From: Haloplanus sp. HW8-1
GTDB taxonomy: Archaea > Halobacteriota > Halobacteria > Halobacteriales > Haloferacaceae
DNA length: 64,000 nt
Reading direction: 5' to 3'
Assembly: GCF_023703795.1 (NCBI RefSeq)
Contig: NZ_CP098518.1
Coordinates: 2,046,001 to 2,110,000 of the forward strand
Part shown: positions 24,797 through 32,546 of the stretch, one piece after another
Layout: every line of letters starts with the position of its first letter
How positions within the stretch are numbered: position 1 is the first letter of the stretch
Made by a program: the position numbers and the translations under genes
The notes under the pieces: generated by a model
Told to the model about the DNA's origin: nothing
Seen by the model: only the letters and a program-made list of their open reading frames with translations
Databases searched by the model: none

Positions 24797-25684
24797 TCAG
24801 CGATCGCCGAGGTACTCCCCGAGGGTGCGAAGGTCCCCCTCCTCGACGTCGAACGCCTCCACGTCGTTGTGCGCGGCCGTGTTGTCGAACCGGAGCGATC
24901 GGTACTGATCGGCACCCATCGGCGCGCCGGGAAGCGATCCGAGCGCCGACAGCCCGATCTTGGCGAGGGCCATCGGCACCGGGATCACGGTCGTCGGCCG
25001 CCCCTCGCTCCCGTGGACAGTGCGCGCGACGTCCGCGAGCGAGAGCCGCTGGGGGCCGCCGATCTCGTAGATGCCGCCGTCGTAGGCGTCGTCCTCGACC
25101 GCCGCCGCGAGCATGGGCACGAGATCCTCGATCCAGATGGGCTGGAACCGGGTCTTCCCGCCGCCCGGCAGGGGCGTCAGGTACGGCGGCGCGAGCTTTT
25201 TCGTGAAGGGGACGAACTCGCCGCCGTCGCCGAAGATCACCGACGGTCGGAAGATGACATAGCGCAGCGACGACGACTTGACGATCTCTTCGGCCGCTCC
25301 CTTGGCGCGGATGTACGCCGTCGCGCCGTCGGGATCGGCGCCGAGCGCGCTCATCTGCAGGATCTTCTCGACGCCCGTCTCCTCGGCCGCTCGCACGACG
25401 TTTTCGGTCCCGCCCCGGTGGATCCGGTCGTGCATCTCGTCGCCGCCCGAGGGCTTGAACAGCGGTGAGAGCGCGACCAGGTTGACGACCGCGTCCTGTC
25501 CCTCCATGGGTTCGACCAGCGAGTCGTAGGCGGTCACGTCCCCCATCGCCTTCTCGACGCCCCCGGGCAGATCGCCCTTGCTCGGTTGTCGCGCGAGCGC
25601 CGTCACCGAGTGACCCCGCGATTTTAGTTCCCGGCACAGGTGTCGGCCGACGAATCCGGTCCCGCCGGTTACGAGGACATCCAT
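24797..25684 (-). CDS. NDUFA9-like NAD(P)-binding protein (atypical SDR)
   Basis: A 295-residue extended or atypical short-chain dehydrogenase related to the complex I assembly subunit NDUFA9. The dinucleotide loop is VLVTGGTGFVGRHLC at the very N-terminus, followed by VVNLVALSPLF, LQMSALGADPDG and YIRAKGAAEEIV, where the usual YxxxK is read as Y-I-R-A-K. Relatives include nucleoside-sugar epimerase-like and phenylcoumaran-type reductases; the substrate is unknown. It ends about 160 bp upstream of the cetZ start on the same strand. Confidence 0.85.
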   Translation of the reverse strand: MDVLVTGGTGFVGRHLCRELKSRGHSVTALARQPSKGDLPGGVEKAMGDVTAYDSLVEPMEGQDAVVNLVALSPLFKPSGGDEMHDRIHRGGTENVVRAAEETGVEKILQMSALGADPDGATAYIRAKGAAEEIVKSSSLRYVIFRPSVIFGDGGEFVPFTKKLAPPYLTPLPGGGKTRFQPIWIEDLVPMLAAAVEDDAYDGGIYEIGGPQRLSLADVARTVHGSEGRPTTVIPVPMALAKIGLSALGSLPGAPMGADQYRSLRFDNTAAHNDVEAFDVEEGDLRTLGEYLGDR

Positions 25685-25751
25685 GACTCACGGTTACCCC
25701 GTATCACGGTAAAGGTAACGCAGTCGAACGGCTCGCCGTGGGAGTGCCGTT

Positions 25752-26291
25752 TCACTCGGCCCGGTCAGAACCGTTGCCGTTTCGCGCCCGCGCTCGTCTC
25801 GGACAATCGACAGTGAACGTCCGTTCCACGAGGGACACCTCGACCCCGACCCCTCGTGCTTCGATAACTTCTATTCGAAGCGTGTCGGCGGATTCGTTTC
25901 CCAACGGATTCACCCGCAGTCCCGGTCCAGTGCCGGGCTCGTAGCCCCGTCCGGACGACCCAGCCCCGTCGAAAACGATCGTGGTGCTGTCGCCGGGATC
26001 GAGGCGGGATCCGTCGACCCGGAGTCCATCCCTCGACCCGCGTGGGACCGTCGCGATGATTTCGATCCGTTCGAGGGTGGTTCGAAACCGGTTCTGGAGA
26101 ACGGTGTTCTCGTGGGGGTTGCCACAGTGCAGGTTTTCGTCGGAAACCCCCAGGAACGCGTCTTCGTCTTCGGCGACAGCTATCTCGACGGGCCGTTCCG
26201 CTACCGTCGTGGTGAATCCGCCGGTTCCCGTCGCTACCAGAACGCTCGTCGCGACGAGGCCGACGACAACGACGTGTCTCGCGGGACCCAT
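25752..26291 (-). CDS. Secreted DUF1102-like protein
   Basis: A 179-residue exported protein with a hydrophobic N-terminal signal (VVVVGLVATSVLVATGTG). Directly after it comes TVAERPVEIAVAEDEDAFLG, which matches the motif R-x-V-x-[VI]-x-VA-x-D-x-x-A-[YF]-L also seen in the two proteins at 27149-29403. The rest is beta-rich, with Cys residues in LHCGNPHE and VDCPRR. No membrane helix follows the signal. It ends 6 bp... upstream of nothing on its strand and lies directly after the DUF7344 regulator. Probably a cell-surface or fibre-like protein; function unproven. Confidence 0.72.
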   Translation of the reverse strand: MGPARHVVVVGLVATSVLVATGTGGFTTTVAERPVEIAVAEDEDAFLGVSDENLHCGNPHENTVLQNRFRTTLERIEIIATVPRGSRDGLRVDGSRLDPGDSTTIVFDGAGSSGRGYEPGTGPGLRVNPLGNESADTLRIEVIEARGVGVEVSLVERTFTVDCPRRARARNGNGSDRAE

Positions 26292-26297
26292 CGGTCT

Positions 26298-26909
26298 TTA
26301 GGATTGCACCTCGGGCGGAGCTGGTTCGGTCCCCAGTTTCATCCTACGTGTCATGATCTGGTGGACGATGGCGGAGATCACGACCCACACGACACAGAAG
26401 ACGCTCCACTGGATGTCGGAGAGCATCGTGAGAGGGAAGACGTCCGCCCAGACGGCGGTCATCAGGGACAACTCGACTACCGACAGGCCGAGATAGTACC
26501 GGCTCCAGGGGAAGTCCCCGCTCGGGACGATCTCGGTGTAGATGTCGACCTCGGAGAGGGTATCCGTGGGCGTGATGGTCCCGTCGCGCCGGTCGAACGA
26601 TACCAGTCCGGCGTCGTCCATCTTCGGCAGATGGCGCTGCTGTAACGCCGTGTACGTGTTCTTCCGCTGGGTCGCCGAGAGTCGATCCGGCTCCGTCCCG
26701 TGTTCCCACGCACCCACCCGCTCGGCGAGTGTCCCGAGGTCGACGGTCTCACGGTGGTACTGCAAGTAGTGAATGGCGTACCGTCGGCGACGGTTCGCCA
26801 GCACCTCGTACAGCGTGTCCCGGGAGGGGTCCCGTTCGGTCGGAGTGCCCTGTTCCGACGGCGCTATCGTCTCCGAGTGTCTCCCCCCTTGGTGTTGTGT
26901 TTTCGACAT
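26298..26909 (-). CDS. DUF7344-type winged-helix regulator with C-terminal membrane helices
   Basis: A 203-residue protein. Residues 35-120 form a haloarchaeal winged helix (LYEVLANRRRRYAIHYLQ, then LPKMDDAGLVSFDRRDG), and residues 145-190 contain two hydrophobic helices (VVELSLMTAVWADVFPL, SVFCVVWVVISAIVHQI), making it a membrane-tethered regulator. The stop lies 6 bp before the secreted protein gene at 26291, suggesting an operon, and it is divergent from the other two secreted proteins, which it may regulate. The ATG at 26909 has a GAGGGG sequence just upstream; an ATG at 26942 is less likely. Confidence 0.8.
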   Translation of the reverse strand: MSKTQHQGGRHSETIAPSEQGTPTERDPSRDTLYEVLANRRRRYAIHYLQYHRETVDLGTLAERVGAWEHGTEPDRLSATQRKNTYTALQQRHLPKMDDAGLVSFDRRDGTITPTDTLSEVDIYTEIVPSGDFPWSRYYLGLSVVELSLMTAVWADVFPLTMLSDIQWSVFCVVWVVISAIVHQIMTRRMKLGTEPAPPEVQS

Positions 26910-26939
26910 TTCCCCTCGTCGTGTGTCGTGTCGACCTGT

Positions 26940-26975
26940 CACATAAAAGTGTATTATTTTTCATAATTTCTTGGG
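26940..26975. promoter_or_regulatory. AT-rich divergent promoter region of the secreted-protein locus
   Basis: An unusually AT-rich stretch containing ACATAAAAGT and TATTATTTTTCATAATTT. On the minus strand TTTTATG (26942-26948) lies about 33 bp before the regulator start at 26909. No equally clear TATA element was found close to the plus-strand gene at 27149, so that gene may have a longer leader. Confidence 0.5.
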
Positions 26976-27148
26976 GGGGTCGACCGTCTTCGCGGCCCCC
27001 GAGAAGGTGCGTTCGGGGACGTTCGCGGTCTCCGTGAGGACGATCCGGGTGACATCGGTCGCCTTCGCGGTACTGAATACAAACACGGTGTGCTTCCACG
27101 GGGAACGCACGCGCTCCCGACGAGTGCGTGACAGAACGGAACGAAACC

Positions 27149-27760
27149 ATGAGACGGAGAAAATTATTGATCGGCGCGGGATCGCTCGTCGCCAGCGGGG
27201 CGGCTGTAGTGGGTTCTGGCGCGTTCACCAGCGCGACGGCGCAGCGGAGTGTCACGGTAAACGTCGCGGGTGACGGGTCAGCCTACCTCAGGTTGAGGCC
27301 CGGCAACTCGTCCGGGGGCGGTCCGAACGCCGCGTACGCCGAGTACAACAGCGACGATGAACTCGAGGTCAATCTCGACGGTTCGGCGTCGAGTGGCTTC
27401 TCCGGAACACAGGGGGACGGCGTGAATCCGGATGCAGTGACCGACATCGACGAGGTGTTTACGATCTATAACCAAGGGACCCAGGACGTCGGGGTCTATC
27501 TCACCGAGAGTTCGAGTGCGGTTACGTTCTACGCACAGAACTCGTTCCCCGCAGGAGGAAGCGGCGGGACGGCGAAGGCTCCGAGCGGCACCAACGACGC
27601 CGGGACTCCCGGAAACGACTCCCTAGAGGGCCAGAGCAATCACGTCGACATGTCTCCCGGTTCGTACCTCGAGGTGAGCATTCAGGTCGATACGACGGGG
27701 ACATCCAGCACCGACCTGCTCGACAACATCACCGTACACGCGGATGCGAGTTTGGTGTAA
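27149..27760 (+). CDS. Secreted DUF1102-family protein (SipW/TasA-like signal)
   Basis: A 203-residue exported protein. The N-terminus MRRRKLLIGAGSLVASGAA with GSGAFTSATAQRS is both Tat-like and similar to SipW-dependent signal peptides. The mature part opens with RSVTVNVAGDGSAYLRL, a DUF1102 hallmark, and continues as an acidic, Gly/Ser/Asn-rich beta domain with NQGTQDVGVYLTE. The next gene begins two bases after the stop (operon). It probably forms or decorates surface structures, by analogy with TasA/CalY-like proteins; that is inference. The ATG at 27149 is chosen over 27128 because the signal begins there. Confidence 0.8.
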   Translation: MRRRKLLIGAGSLVASGAAVVGSGAFTSATAQRSVTVNVAGDGSAYLRLRPGNSSGGGPNAAYAEYNSDDELEVNLDGSASSGFSGTQGDGVNPDAVTDIDEVFTIYNQGTQDVGVYLTESSSAVTFYAQNSFPAGGSGGTAKAPSGTNDAGTPGNDSLEGQSNHVDMSPGSYLEVSIQVDTTGTSSTDLLDNITVHADASLV

Positions 27761-27762
27761 CA

Positions 27763-29403
27763 ATGAAACGACGTAACCTTCTCCTCGGCATCGGCGGCCT
27801 CTCTGCGGCCGGTGCGGGCATGAGAACCGGAGCGTTCAGCCTCGGGACCGTCGACCGGAGCGCCGACGTCACCGTCGCCAACGAGGACGACGCGTACCTC
27901 GCGATGGCACCCTCGTCCGGCCCGAACGGTGCGTACGCGACACAGGGCAGTAACAAAAACGAGCTTGCGCTGGACTTCACGAATAACGGACAGGGAGGCG
28001 GAGTCAACAGCGAAGGTGAATTCTACTTCGACAACGTATTGACCGTCGAGAACCGAGCCACTCAAACCGTCTACGTCTGGGCGCGATTCGGCGGCGGTAG
28101 CCAGTTCGACAACCAGAACCTCTACCTCTACCCGAACGGGGCACGCGACACGAAACTCAACGATCAGTCCAACAGCGTGCTCACGCTCGCGCCAGGCGAA
28201 CGCGCAAACATCGGAGCGTATATCGATACGTCCTCCACGTCGACAGGGTCCAGCGAGACGCTCACCATGACGGTTCGGGCCGACGTGGACAACCCGAGCG
28301 GCACCAACTCGGTGGGGCCGAGCGGCGGGCAGGCCCTCGTGGTAAGCCAAGACCCCGACCAGAACGAGTACGGGTCGATACAGAACGCCATCGACGACGC
28401 CACCGGGACCGATGTGCTCGTCGAGGCCGGTACGTACAACGAGGCCATCGTCATCGACAAGGACGATATCACGCTCCGATCGCTTGCGGGTGCGGGTCAA
28501 ACCACGATCCGGGCGTCGACGGAGGATGCGAACGTCGACTTCGGCACGGGATCGAACAAGGCTGTTCTCGTCGACGGCGCCACGGACGTCACGATCGACG
28601 GATTCACGGTCACCTTCGAGTCCGCGCCTGCCAACAACAGCGAGAAGTACGCCGTCCGGGGCCGACCGGATGGCAGCGGCGGCGGTCCCGACAACCTTGT
28701 CGTGGCGAACAACATCATCGAAGACTTCAGTACGTCCGATCAGCCCGGGAACTCGGGTGCTGTCAGGGCGGGCGGCGTCTCCATCGACATGAACCCGACC
28801 GGTGGCCTCGGGCCTGCAACGACTAACGGAATCGAGGTCAGAAACAACATCATTCGGGATATCGAGTGTGTGGGTGACGTCGACCAGAACGACTCCAGGG
28901 CAAAGGGCATCGCGATGAACGGTGATGTCCAAGAGGCGGTCATCATGGACAACACCATCCACAACATCGGGACCACTTCGAACGAGGATCCCAACGCTGC
29001 AGAGGAACTTGCGAACACCTCCGGTGTCGAAGGGACTGAAAAGCCCCGCGGGATCTCCCTCACTGAAAATGGTCCTACTGGCCCCACGAACTTCGAAATC
29101 GTCAGAAACGACTTCGACGGTATCGAAGGGACCTACGGCCAGCCGGCGATCTTCGTTGGAGGATCGAACGGTCTCGGCGGCAGTCACGCGGTGAGGTTCA
29201 ACAACTTCCGGCATCCCGTGGACAATCTCAGTGGTGAGGCGCTCGTTCTGCGAAAGAACTGGTGGTCGTCCGGGAGTCCTCCCGCTACCAGTTCTGCCGA
29301 CAGCGACGCAGACGGGGGTGTCCTGATCGATCGAGGACCCGGTGCCTACGACCAGAACAACTCGCGTAGTAGCCAAGTGAACGATGCGGGATCCGATCTC
29401 TGA
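27763..29403 (+). CDS. Secreted DUF1102-like protein with right-handed beta-helix domain
   Basis: A 546-residue exported protein. It begins MKRRNLLLGIGGLSAAGAG with RTGAFSLGTVDRS and the motif VTVANEDDAYLAM shared with its upstream neighbour; residues 30-180 correspond to the DUF1102 domain. From about residue 190 comes a parallel beta-helix: YGSIQNAIDDATGTDVLVEA is the usual NosD/pectate-lyase-like entry, followed by repeated V-x-N-N-x-I rungs (VVANNIIEDF, VRNNIIRDI, IMDNTIHNI, IVRNDFDGI). Such helices bind or cleave polysaccharide. The fusion suggests a surface protein that contacts glycans; catalytic residues were not identified. Confidence 0.82.
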   Translation: MKRRNLLLGIGGLSAAGAGMRTGAFSLGTVDRSADVTVANEDDAYLAMAPSSGPNGAYATQGSNKNELALDFTNNGQGGGVNSEGEFYFDNVLTVENRATQTVYVWARFGGGSQFDNQNLYLYPNGARDTKLNDQSNSVLTLAPGERANIGAYIDTSSTSTGSSETLTMTVRADVDNPSGTNSVGPSGGQALVVSQDPDQNEYGSIQNAIDDATGTDVLVEAGTYNEAIVIDKDDITLRSLAGAGQTTIRASTEDANVDFGTGSNKAVLVDGATDVTIDGFTVTFESAPANNSEKYAVRGRPDGSGGGPDNLVVANNIIEDFSTSDQPGNSGAVRAGGVSIDMNPTGGLGPATTNGIEVRNNIIRDIECVGDVDQNDSRAKGIAMNGDVQEAVIMDNTIHNIGTTSNEDPNAAEELANTSGVEGTEKPRGISLTENGPTGPTNFEIVRNDFDGIEGTYGQPAIFVGGSNGLGGSHAVRFNNFRHPVDNLSGEALVLRKNWWSSGSPPATSSADSDADGGVLIDRGPGAYDQNNSRSSQVNDAGSDL

Positions 29404-29969
29404 GGCCAAGGGAGAGTAACGGAACGAAGATCCACTTGAGCACCCTGTTTTCACATCTTTCGATCGAATCGTGTGGAGACGGCTGTTGAAGACGAACGAT
29501 ACTCTTGCCCACTGGGTGCACGCCGTCCTCTGTGGAGTGGATTCCGTGGCGTGACATCGTCGCGTAATGGCGGTTCGACGCCGCCGGTGAGCCCCGATCG
29601 GCGAAACGGACGAACCGGCCCGGCGTCGCCCCCGAACGACGGAATCCCCGGATGTTGGACGATGCCCACTCGGGCACTTCCCGAGTATCCGACCTCGCCG
29701 ATCCCGACTGACTCCCGACCCGGTGGGAACCACCGATATTCGATGTCCGTCCTGCAAGCACTCCACTGCCCGAAGCCGAGGTGTGGAATCGCAGACTGGA
29801 CGGCGACGCGCGGGGTTTCCACCGTCACCGGGTGTCCGTAGGAGTCCGACCCGCGACATAGGCACCCGGCGCCGCCCCCGCGTCCGCCGGTTGCGAGAAC
29901 ACCCGCGACGCCAAACCTGACGCGGCCCTGGACCCCGACGCTTAACCTCCCTGCCGACCCACCCTCGCC
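29404..29969. other. 566-bp region with no recognisable gene
   Basis: It lies between the beta-helix protein gene and tmk. GC content is lower near the left end, where a T-rich stretch (TGTTTTCACATCTTT, about 29448-29462) could end transcription. Open frames on both strands have Arg/Pro-rich, shadow-like composition. A TATA-like CTTAAC at 29941 serves tmk. I see no tRNA, repeat or protein family here. Confidence 0.5.
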
Positions 29970-32189: not shown

Positions 32190-32289
32190 TCGAACCACGG
32201 TCGTTCCACTCCCTGATTCGAACCCCTCGGCACACTGCACGCTCCGCACGGTCGTTCGGAGCGGCAGTGCGAGGGAGGGGATTCGAACC
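32190..32289. repeat. 100-bp direct repeat, distal copy, ending in a tRNA-Leu 3' fragment
   Basis: Identical over 100 bp to 32384-32483. Both copies contain a strong inverted repeat (CACTGC, GCTCCG / CGGAGC, GCAGTG) and end in the 22-nt 3' end of tRNA-Leu (acceptor strand plus T arm). The proximal copy ends inside the real tRNA. Confidence 0.9.
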
Positions 32290-32368
32290 GGAACCGGACT
32301 CGCTTCGCTCGTCCGGTAGGGGACGAATCCCGACGTACTCGCTCGGCGCGGACGGGCGCCTCGCTCGA

Positions 32369-32390
32369 TGCGAGGGAGGGGATTCGAACC
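32369..32390 (-). other. Additional copy of the tRNA-Leu 3' end (att-like)
   Basis: The 22-nt 3' end of the tRNA (T arm, acceptor strand and discriminator) occurs here and at 32268-32289, in the same orientation as the tRNA at 32462-32546. Repeats of a tRNA 3' end downstream of the gene are what site-specific integration into tRNA genes leaves behind. The two segments between copies are only 71-79 bp, so no element remains. Confidence 0.65.
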
Positions 32391-32483
32391 ACGGTCGTTC
32401 CACTCCCTGATTCGAACCCCTCGGCACACTGCACGCTCCGCACGGTCGTTCGGAGCGGCAGTGCGAGGGAGGGGATTCGAACC
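32384..32483. repeat. 100-bp direct repeat, proximal copy, overlapping tRNA-Leu
   Basis: Identical to 32190-32289, at an offset of 194 bp. Its right end is formed by the first 22 bases of the tRNA gene's 3' end (32462-32483). Confidence 0.9.
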
Positions 32484-32546
32484 CCCGAACTCCTTCGAGA
32501 GCGGGTCTTAAGCCCGCCGCCTTTGGCCTGGCTCGGCCACCCTCGC
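32462..32546 (-). tRNA. tRNA-Leu (anticodon TAA)
   Basis: Read on the minus strand it folds as a class II tRNA: acceptor GCGAGGG / CCCTCGC with discriminator A, D arm around TGGCCGAGCCAGGCC, anticodon stem GCGGG / CCCGC with loop CTTAAGA (anticodon TAA), a long variable arm, and T arm GGGG-TTCGAAT-CCCC. It decodes UUA/UUG leucine codons. No intron is present and CCA is not encoded. Its 3' end is repeated twice downstream. Confidence 0.97.

What the first reader, a model, noticed from the sequence alone, without database searches (positions are those of the whole stretch)
25752..29403. Three secreted proteins with one shared N-terminal motif and a membrane-tethered regulator
The proteins at 25752-26291, 27149-27760 and 27763-29403 each have a hydrophobic signal directly followed by the same motif: R-x-[VA]-x-[VI]-x-VA-x-[DE]-x-x-A-[YF]-L (QRSVTVNVAGDGSAYLRL, DRSADVTVANEDDAYLAM, ERPVEIAVAEDEDAFLGV). 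Two have Tat/SipW-like signals (RRRKLLIGAGS, KRRNLLLGIGG). The third is fused to a right-handed beta-helix. A DUF7344 winged-helix protein with two membrane helices divides the divergent halves. The motif placement resembles TasA/CalY and archaeal bundling-pilus-type secreted proteins. This may be a fibre or biofilm-matrix system with its own membrane-bound regulator and a glycan-binding subunit.
Basis: partly seen in the sequence, partly recalled or inferred. Interest (0 to 1): 0.78.

Follow-up and report, generated by a model that had tools for sequence, protein, structure and literature searches.

The report
Mobile Tat-fimbria islet with helix adhesin
A salt-loving archaeon carries a four-gene insert encoding thread-building surface proteins of the recently described Tat-fimbria ("tafi") kind, one of them carrying a sugar-enzyme-like beta-helix, plus the membrane-bound regulator that usually sits beside such genes; the kind is known, but the portable insert and the helix-carrying subunit are new details.

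Summary
The three proteins share one N-terminus (signal plus alternating-hydrophobic strand): a profile built only from other genomes finds them at 2e-51, 2.5e-48 and 5e-10. They are not Peptidase_M73/CalY members. A SipW-type peptidase exists, in a second, fuller taf cluster. In 52 of 80 nearest DUF7344 loci, DUF7344 sits with taf genes, usually followed by a 25752-like gene and divergent from pilins. New here: (1) the four genes are a 4.2-kb islet absent from the syntenic site in all 11 congeners, with lower GC and a regulator unlike the resident one; (2) 27763 fuses a Taf pilin to a beta-helix whose nearest relative sits on a CalY-type carrier in a congener; (3) pilins and 25752-like proteins carry the motif but membrane anchors do not (115/117 and 33/35 versus 1/24), suggesting a donor strand that sets fibre polarity.

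The parts
25752..26291 (-). Short secreted protein with Taf-type N-terminus (signal + donor-like strand) on an Ig-like body; relative of the N-terminal part of TafC, no lectin domain; Sec-type signal, cysteines at 56 and 163
   Evidence: NCBIfam TafC 1.9e-7 / TafE 3e-5; ext-HMM 5e-10; family profile hits Tafi pilin 9p0a 1.6e-8 over N-terminus; AF2 + Foldseek lamin-type Ig (low confidence); downstream of DUF7344 in 45 of 52 taf loci
26298..26942 (-). DUF7344 winged-helix protein with two C-terminal membrane helices; putative membrane-tethered regulator of the taf genes
   Evidence: Pfam DUF7344 99.3 bits; alignment with taf-linked homologues 34-46% identical; hydropathy; tree groups it with Haloarculaceae/Haloquadratum copies, not the resident copy
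26943..27148 (.). Divergent intergenic region (presumed promoters and operator), 206 bp, 58% GC
   Evidence: no perfect palindrome of 7+ bp found
27149..27760 (+). Taf-type pilin with Tat signal (MRRRKLLIGAGS), TafE/TafA-like
   Evidence: NCBIfam TafE 4.6e-17, 62.3 bits versus cut-off 155; TafA 8e-9; 9p0a Tafi pilin 1.1e-7 single-sequence, 4.5e-35 by profile
27763..29403 (+). Chimera: Tat signal + Taf-type pilin domain (about residues 1-178) + right-handed beta-helix (about 190-500)
   Evidence: DUF1102 22.3 bits (cut-off 22.2) and TafE 1.8e-9; AF2 N-domain pLDDT 73-94 over 41-178; Foldseek: thread 7pnb, Tafi 9p0a, bundling pilus 7ueg for N-domain, GH87/pectin methylesterase/PL6/RbmB for helix; beta-helix 45% identical over 342 aa to a CalY-type protein of a congener
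25721..29929 (.). The inserted islet; approximate limits from comparison with the empty site between the epimerase and tmk genes in 11 congeners
   Evidence: GC 62.4% versus 68.5% window; GC3 0.71-0.81 versus 0.87-0.90 in neighbouring genes
25662..25687 (.). Left copy of imperfect 26-nt direct repeat flanking the islet (5' end of the epimerase gene)
   Evidence: 81% identical to 29884-29909; suggestive only
29884..29909 (.). Right copy of the imperfect repeat; resembles a decayed epimerase 5' end
   Evidence: protein-level score 56 versus best of 300 shuffles 54

Best explanation
A horizontally acquired, four-gene Tat-fimbria (tafi-class) islet. 27149 and 27763 are exported by Tat, 25752 probably by Sec; the signals are probably removed by the TIGR02228/SipW-type peptidase of the resident taf cluster. 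The conserved strand just after the signal (R-x-V-x-V-x-VA-x-D-x-x-A-F-L) is the donor strand that each subunit inserts into the open beta-sandwich of its neighbour, as in TasA. Pilins (27149, N-domain of 27763) donate and accept. The 25752/TafC-like protein carries the donor strand on an apparently complete Ig-like body, so it would donate only and cap or start the fibre (as TapA does for TasA). Membrane-anchored TafF-like proteins of the resident cluster lack the strand and would only accept, forming the base. 27763 displays a beta-helix on the fibre, probably to bind or process polysaccharide. The DUF7344 two-helix protein is a membrane-bound one-component regulator of the divergent operons. 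Shown here: homology, conserved gene order, insertion, motif distribution. Inferred: export route, donor-strand exchange in these proteins, polarity, cap role, glycan binding, regulation.
For: Homology to Tafi pilin 9p0a and Taf NCBIfam models, independent HMM. A reference locus with all four Taf models over cut-off has the same parts: TafA, DUF7344, TafC, SipW-type peptidase, TafE, TafF, DUF5305. Conserved order [DUF7344-25752-like] divergent from [pilins ... anchor - peptidase - DUF5305]: 45/52 with 25752-like downstream, 47/52 divergent pilin, 44/52 peptidase. Own genome has a full cluster at C1:1,204-1,217 kb with the only above-cut-off TIGR02228 peptidase. Empty site in 11/11 congeners, low GC/GC3, DUF7344 phylogeny (99% SH-aLRT with Haloarculaceae/Haloquadratum copies; resident copy 99% with Haloplanus). 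Motif in 115/117 pilins and 33/35 25752-like proteins but 1/24 anchors. AF2 leaves residues 1-42, including the motif, disordered in the 27763 monomer. TasA uses an N-terminal donor strand (PMC9674648); TapA donates its N-terminus from a complete Ig fold (PMC10151520).
Against: Taf equivalog cut-offs are not reached by any of the three. Foldseek E-values are weak (0.001-0.02) and the 25752 model is poor (pLDDT 65). The islet has no peptidase, DUF5305 or anchor of its own, so it may be a decaying fragment rather than a working add-on. No expression data. 28 of the 80 nearest DUF7344 genes are not beside taf genes, so the regulator type is not specific to fimbriae.
Confidence: 0.78

Rival explanations
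1. The islet is a complete, self-standing fimbria making its own short fibres, independent of the resident cluster apart from general secretion.
For: It has pilin, pilin-adhesin, 25752-like cap and regulator; its regulator lineage is distinct, so it may be controlled separately.
Against: It lacks the peptidase, anchor and DUF5305 that accompany most taf loci.
Confidence: 0.15
2. It is a TasA/CalY (SipW-dependent) matrix system proper.
For: A SipW-type peptidase exists in the genome; the same beta-helix is fused to a Peptidase_M73/SipW-signal carrier in a congener; donor-strand logic is shared.
Against: No Peptidase_M73 or cognate_SipW hit to any of the three; no Peptidase_M73 match in this genome; RR signals and Taf/DUF1102 profiles instead.
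Confidence: 0.04
3. 25752 and DUF7344 form a signalling pair: the secreted pilin-like protein reports fibre assembly to the membrane-tethered regulator, a feedback control like assembly checkpoints elsewhere.
For: The two are adjacent in 45 of 52 taf loci while pilins vary in number and side; the regulator has membrane helices with only a short outer loop.
Against: In the reference loci the downstream gene is TafC with a lectin domain, better suited to a structural role; the outer loop is small.
Confidence: 0.2
4. The beta-helix of 27763 is an active polysaccharide lyase or hydrolase that remodels the matrix, not an adhesin.
For: Foldseek neighbours of the helix are GH87, pectin methylesterases, PL6 and RbmB.
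Against: In the helix alignment (17 sequences) only D211, E221 and E227 stand out as conserved charged residues, near the helix start; no conserved Lys/Arg/His set is seen. Foldseek matches only the general fold and the model is of medium confidence.
Confidence: 0.2

Closest known systems
Tat-fimbriae (tafi) of haloarchaea, TafA/TafC/TafE/TafF (Galeva et al. 2025, iScience 28:111793; cited through PMC12687288, original not held) and the solved Natrinema sp. J7-2 Tafi pilus, PDB 9p0a
   Same: Tat-type signals, same N-terminal strand motif, homologous pilin domain (4.5e-35), DUF7344 gene next to a TafC-like gene, SipW-type peptidase and DUF5305 in the cluster family
   Different: Below NCBI equivalog cut-offs; islet lacks peptidase, anchor and DUF5305; passenger is a beta-helix on a pilin instead of the LamG lectin on TafC; cap protein short and without lectin; inserted in one species only among 12 congeners
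Archaeal bundling pili (Pyrobaculum calidifontis, 7ueg) and threads (Saci_0406, 7pnb)
   Same: N-domain matches in structure search; donor-strand-complemented filaments
   Different: Foldseek E-values only 0.003-0.02; Saci_0406 is Sec-exported; different clusters
TasA/TapA/SipW of Bacillus and CalY/camelysin (Peptidase_M73)
   Same: Dedicated SipW-type peptidase, N-terminal donor strand, accessory Ig protein with the same N-terminal strand; beta-helix passenger shared with a CalY-type carrier in a congener
   Different: No Peptidase_M73 or SipW-cognate signal match; Tat signals; different pilin family
DUF7344 proteins of haloarchaea
   Same: Winged-helix domain, 99 bits
   Different: This sub-type has two C-terminal membrane helices and is mostly linked to taf genes; function of the domain is not published to my knowledge

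Membership tests
Tat-fimbriae (tafi) | Pilin homologous to TafA/TafE and to the solved Tafi pilin | tested here: met
   TafE 4.6e-17 and 1.8e-9; 9p0a 4.5e-35 by profile
Tat-fimbriae (tafi) | Score above NCBIfam equivalog cut-off for TafA, TafC or TafE | tested here: not met
   62, 37.5 and 30.5 bits versus 155, 155 and 410; other Haloplanus, Halorubrum and Natrinema loci also fall short, so it is not filed as TafA/TafC/TafE, only as the wider Taf class
Tat-fimbriae (tafi) | Twin-arginine signal on the pilins | tested here: met
   Read in 27149 and 27763; 25752 lacks it
Tat-fimbriae (tafi) | Export depends on Tat; fibres visible | not testable with these tools
   needs mutants and microscopy
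Tat-fimbriae (tafi) | DUF7344 gene beside a TafC-type gene | tested here: met
   Present in the reference locus L150 and in the islet; 45 of 52 taf loci
Tat-fimbriae (tafi) | SipW/TIGR02228 peptidase, TafF-like anchor and DUF5305 in the cluster | tested here: not met
   Absent from the islet; present in the second cluster of the same genome
TasA/CalY (Peptidase_M73) | Peptidase_M73 profile and SipW-cognate signal (TIGR04088) | tested here: not met
   No hit at E<=1; no Peptidase_M73 match in the genome; control protein in congener G073 does hit
TasA/CalY (Peptidase_M73) | SipW-type peptidase in the genome | tested here: met
   C1:1208106-1208450, TIGR02228 58.8 bits, SipW 3.5e-9
Archaeal type IV pilins | Type IV pilin family profile | tested here: not met
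   No pilin-family hit in Pfam or NCBIfam
DUF1102 | Pfam PF06510 over gathering score | tested here: inconclusive
   27763 22.3 bits (just over 22.2), 27149 18.7, 25752 none

The most novel reading that the evidence does not exclude
Haloarchaea exchange portable fimbria islets (regulator + cap + pilin + pilin-fused adhesin) that plug into a resident Tat-fimbria machine and retarget it, and their beta-helix adhesin modules are swapped between two different donor-strand fibre carriers (Taf and CalY/TasA type); fibre polarity is set by which subunits carry the N-terminal donor strand (pilins and cap yes, membrane anchor no).
Probability: 0.35. Interest if true: 0.65.

Novelty: new variant of a known kind. 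Interest (0 to 1): 0.5.

Why it matters
It ties a membrane-tethered DUF7344 regulator to a new archaeal fibre class across many genera, gives a simple testable rule for how Tat-fimbriae are polarised and capped, and shows that fibre-displayed modules (LamG lectin, beta-helix) are interchangeable and mobile, including between Taf and CalY-type carriers.

Tried and rejected
TasA/CalY membership: rejected by profiles. Virus or provirus origin of the islet: no PHROGs hit, and no integrase among the listed ORFs of the islet. RNA element at 29525 (ARAGORN 'tRNA-???'): not supported by Rfam. Shared operator palindrome in the divergent region: none of 7+ bp in the window or three Haloplanus clusters. 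Epimerase-remnant at the right edge: only marginally above shuffles, kept as a lead. First motif count on anchors included the signal region and was misleading; redone after the signal. Papers: Galeva 2025 and the 9p0a paper are not in the library. Wider search for the beta-helix in 392 genomes of the order found no other close copy at 1e-20; that sample did not show G073, so it does not cover every genome.
Full report
WHAT IS THERE. The window lies in a haloarchaeal genome of 3.84 Mb (G000:C1:2046001-2110000). The genus is probably Haloplanus: genome G072, listed as same genus, has a contig of the same length (1,505,787) as Haloplanus ruber R35. The four ORFs are as described: 25752-26291 (-) and DUF7344 26298-26942 (-), 6 bp apart and co-directional; 27149-27760 (+) and 27763-29403 (+) divergent from them.

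THE MOTIF IS REAL. An HMM built only from 64 domains of other genomes finds 27149 (2.2e-51), 27763 (2.5e-48) and 25752 (5.1e-10) among 953 ORFs.

WHAT KIND. NCBIfam matches are TafE, TafA and TafC, fimbrial proteins: 27149 to TafE 4.6e-17, 27763 to TafE 1.8e-9, 25752 to TafC 1.9e-7, all under the curated cut-offs. DUF1102 is reached by 27763 only, at 22.3 bits against 22.2. The Taf names belong to the Tat-fimbriae (tafi) described by Galeva et al. 2025, known here through a citing paper (PMC12687288). The family profile finds the Natrinema sp. J7-2 Tafi pilus chain 9p0a at 4.5e-35, and the 25752-family profile finds it at 1.6e-8 over the N-terminus. In an AlphaFold2 model of 27763 the N-domain is confident (pLDDT 73-94 over residues 41-178) while residues 1-42, motif included, are disordered. 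Foldseek finds thread 7pnb (2.6e-3), Tafi 9p0a (1.3e-2) and bundling pili 7ueg (1.7e-2) for it, and GH87, pectin methylesterase, PL6 and RbmB for the helix. These E-values are weak; the sequence evidence carries the assignment.

THE KNOWN CLUSTER AND THE ISLET. In genome G362 all four Taf models are over cut-off in one cluster: TafA 244 bits, TafE 227, TafC 574 and TafF 516, with DUF7344 between TafA and TafC, a TIGR02228/SipW-type peptidase, and a DUF5305 protein. TafC is a Taf-type N-part plus a LamG lectin. By gene order DUF7344 would be 'TafB' and the peptidase 'TafD'; that naming is my inference. The window's own genome has such a cluster at C1:1,204-1,217 kb: DUF7344 plus a 25752-like gene, divergent from four pilins, a beta-helix protein, an anchor with CARDB and PGF-pre-PGF regions and a C-terminal membrane helix, the peptidase and DUF5305. 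That peptidase is the only TIGR02228 match over cut-off in the genome. The window locus is a smaller version without peptidase, anchor or DUF5305.

CONSERVED LINKAGE. Of the 80 nearest DUF7344 loci in the genome collection, 52 carry taf-type genes. Of these, 45 have a 25752-like gene directly downstream of DUF7344, 47 a divergent pilin and 44 the peptidase. The other 28 have no taf genes nearby, so this regulator type is not restricted to fimbriae. The protein has a winged-helix domain and two C-terminal membrane helices; regulation of taf genes is inferred from position only.

AN INSERTED ISLET. In all 11 other genomes of the genus the epimerase and tmk genes that flank the islet lie next to each other, with about 70-190 bp between them, whereas here 4.3 kb separates them. 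The islet's GC is 62.4% against 68.5% for the window, and GC3 of its genes is 0.71-0.81 against 0.87-0.90 for neighbours. Its DUF7344 groups with Haloarculaceae and Haloquadratum copies (99% SH-aLRT), while the resident cluster's DUF7344 groups with Haloplanus. So it is an acquired locus, not a recent local duplication. An imperfect 26-nt direct repeat flanks it, the right copy resembling a decayed epimerase 5' end; this is only suggestive.

THE BETA-HELIX CHIMERA. The pilin half of 27763 is closest to pilins of other genera (52% to L042), but its helix half is closest to a protein of a congener (45% over 342 aa, 210 bits, next best 87 bits). That protein carries the helix on a different carrier: Peptidase_M73 32.6 bits and a SipW-cognate signal 31.3 bits, both over cut-off, that is a CalY/TasA-type protein. 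The same helix module is thus found on two kinds of fibre carrier. Other taf loci carry LamG domains or beta-helices on pilins.

HOW IT MOST LIKELY WORKS. In TasA an N-terminal strand of each subunit completes the next subunit's sandwich (PMC9674648), and TapA, with an already complete Ig fold, donates its N-terminus to start the fibre (PMC10151520). Here the motif has the alternating pattern of such a strand, sits at the mature N-terminus and is unstructured in the monomer model. It is present in 115 of 117 pilins and 33 of 35 25752-like proteins, but in 1 of 24 membrane anchors (26 anchors could not be scored automatically). The simplest reading: pilins donate and accept, the anchor only accepts and forms the base, and the 25752/TafC-like protein only donates and caps or starts the fibre; in full TafC that cap carries a lectin, in the islet the display job falls to 27763. 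The 25752 model looks Ig-like (lamin Ig, 5e-3) but is of low confidence, so the donor-only claim is tentative.

LIMITS. No expression, export or fibre data exist here. The islet may be a degraded cluster rather than a working add-on. Taf membership is claimed for the wider class only.

Noticed in passing
L039:8884-10458 (congener genome G073): Same beta-helix as in 27763 fused to a Peptidase_M73/SipW-signal (CalY/TasA-type) carrier; the window genome has no Peptidase_M73 match while 7 of 12 genomes of the genus do.
   Followed up: yes
L006:1202-13601 (own genome C1:1,204-1,217 kb): Second, complete taf cluster with SipW-type peptidase, DUF5305, membrane anchor and its own DUF7344 + 25752-like pair; a HerA-like ATPase ORF follows.
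   Followed up: partly
own genome C1:590540-590836 (-), L050:8256-8837: Solitary TafE-like pilin gene (56.9 bits) with no regulator or peptidase found in the 18 kb around it.
   Followed up: partly
L006, L052 and L054, regions between DUF7344 and the first pilin: The three Haloplanus main clusters share GATTGAA and TTCAACG-type boxes in the divergent promoter region; the islet lacks them, so it may answer to a different operator.
   Followed up: no
window 32190-32546: A tRNA-Leu gene (32461-32546, -) whose 3' end is repeated: 22 nt TGCGAGGGAGGGGATTCGAACC three times and an exact 100-nt duplication at 194-nt spacing, like repeated attachment sites of an integrating element.
   Followed up: no
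L057, L058, L059 (own genome C1:1.62, 0.77 and 2.41 Mb): Three more DUF7344 proteins of the two-membrane-helix type with no taf genes near; many Natrialbaceae genomes also have such lone copies.
   Followed up: no
family-wide hits (for example G160:C2:52-72 kb = L041): Arrays of Taf pilin domains fused to long C-terminal regions (open frames of 400-1,450 aa; LamG or beta-helix where checked): a repertoire of displayed domains.
   Followed up: partly
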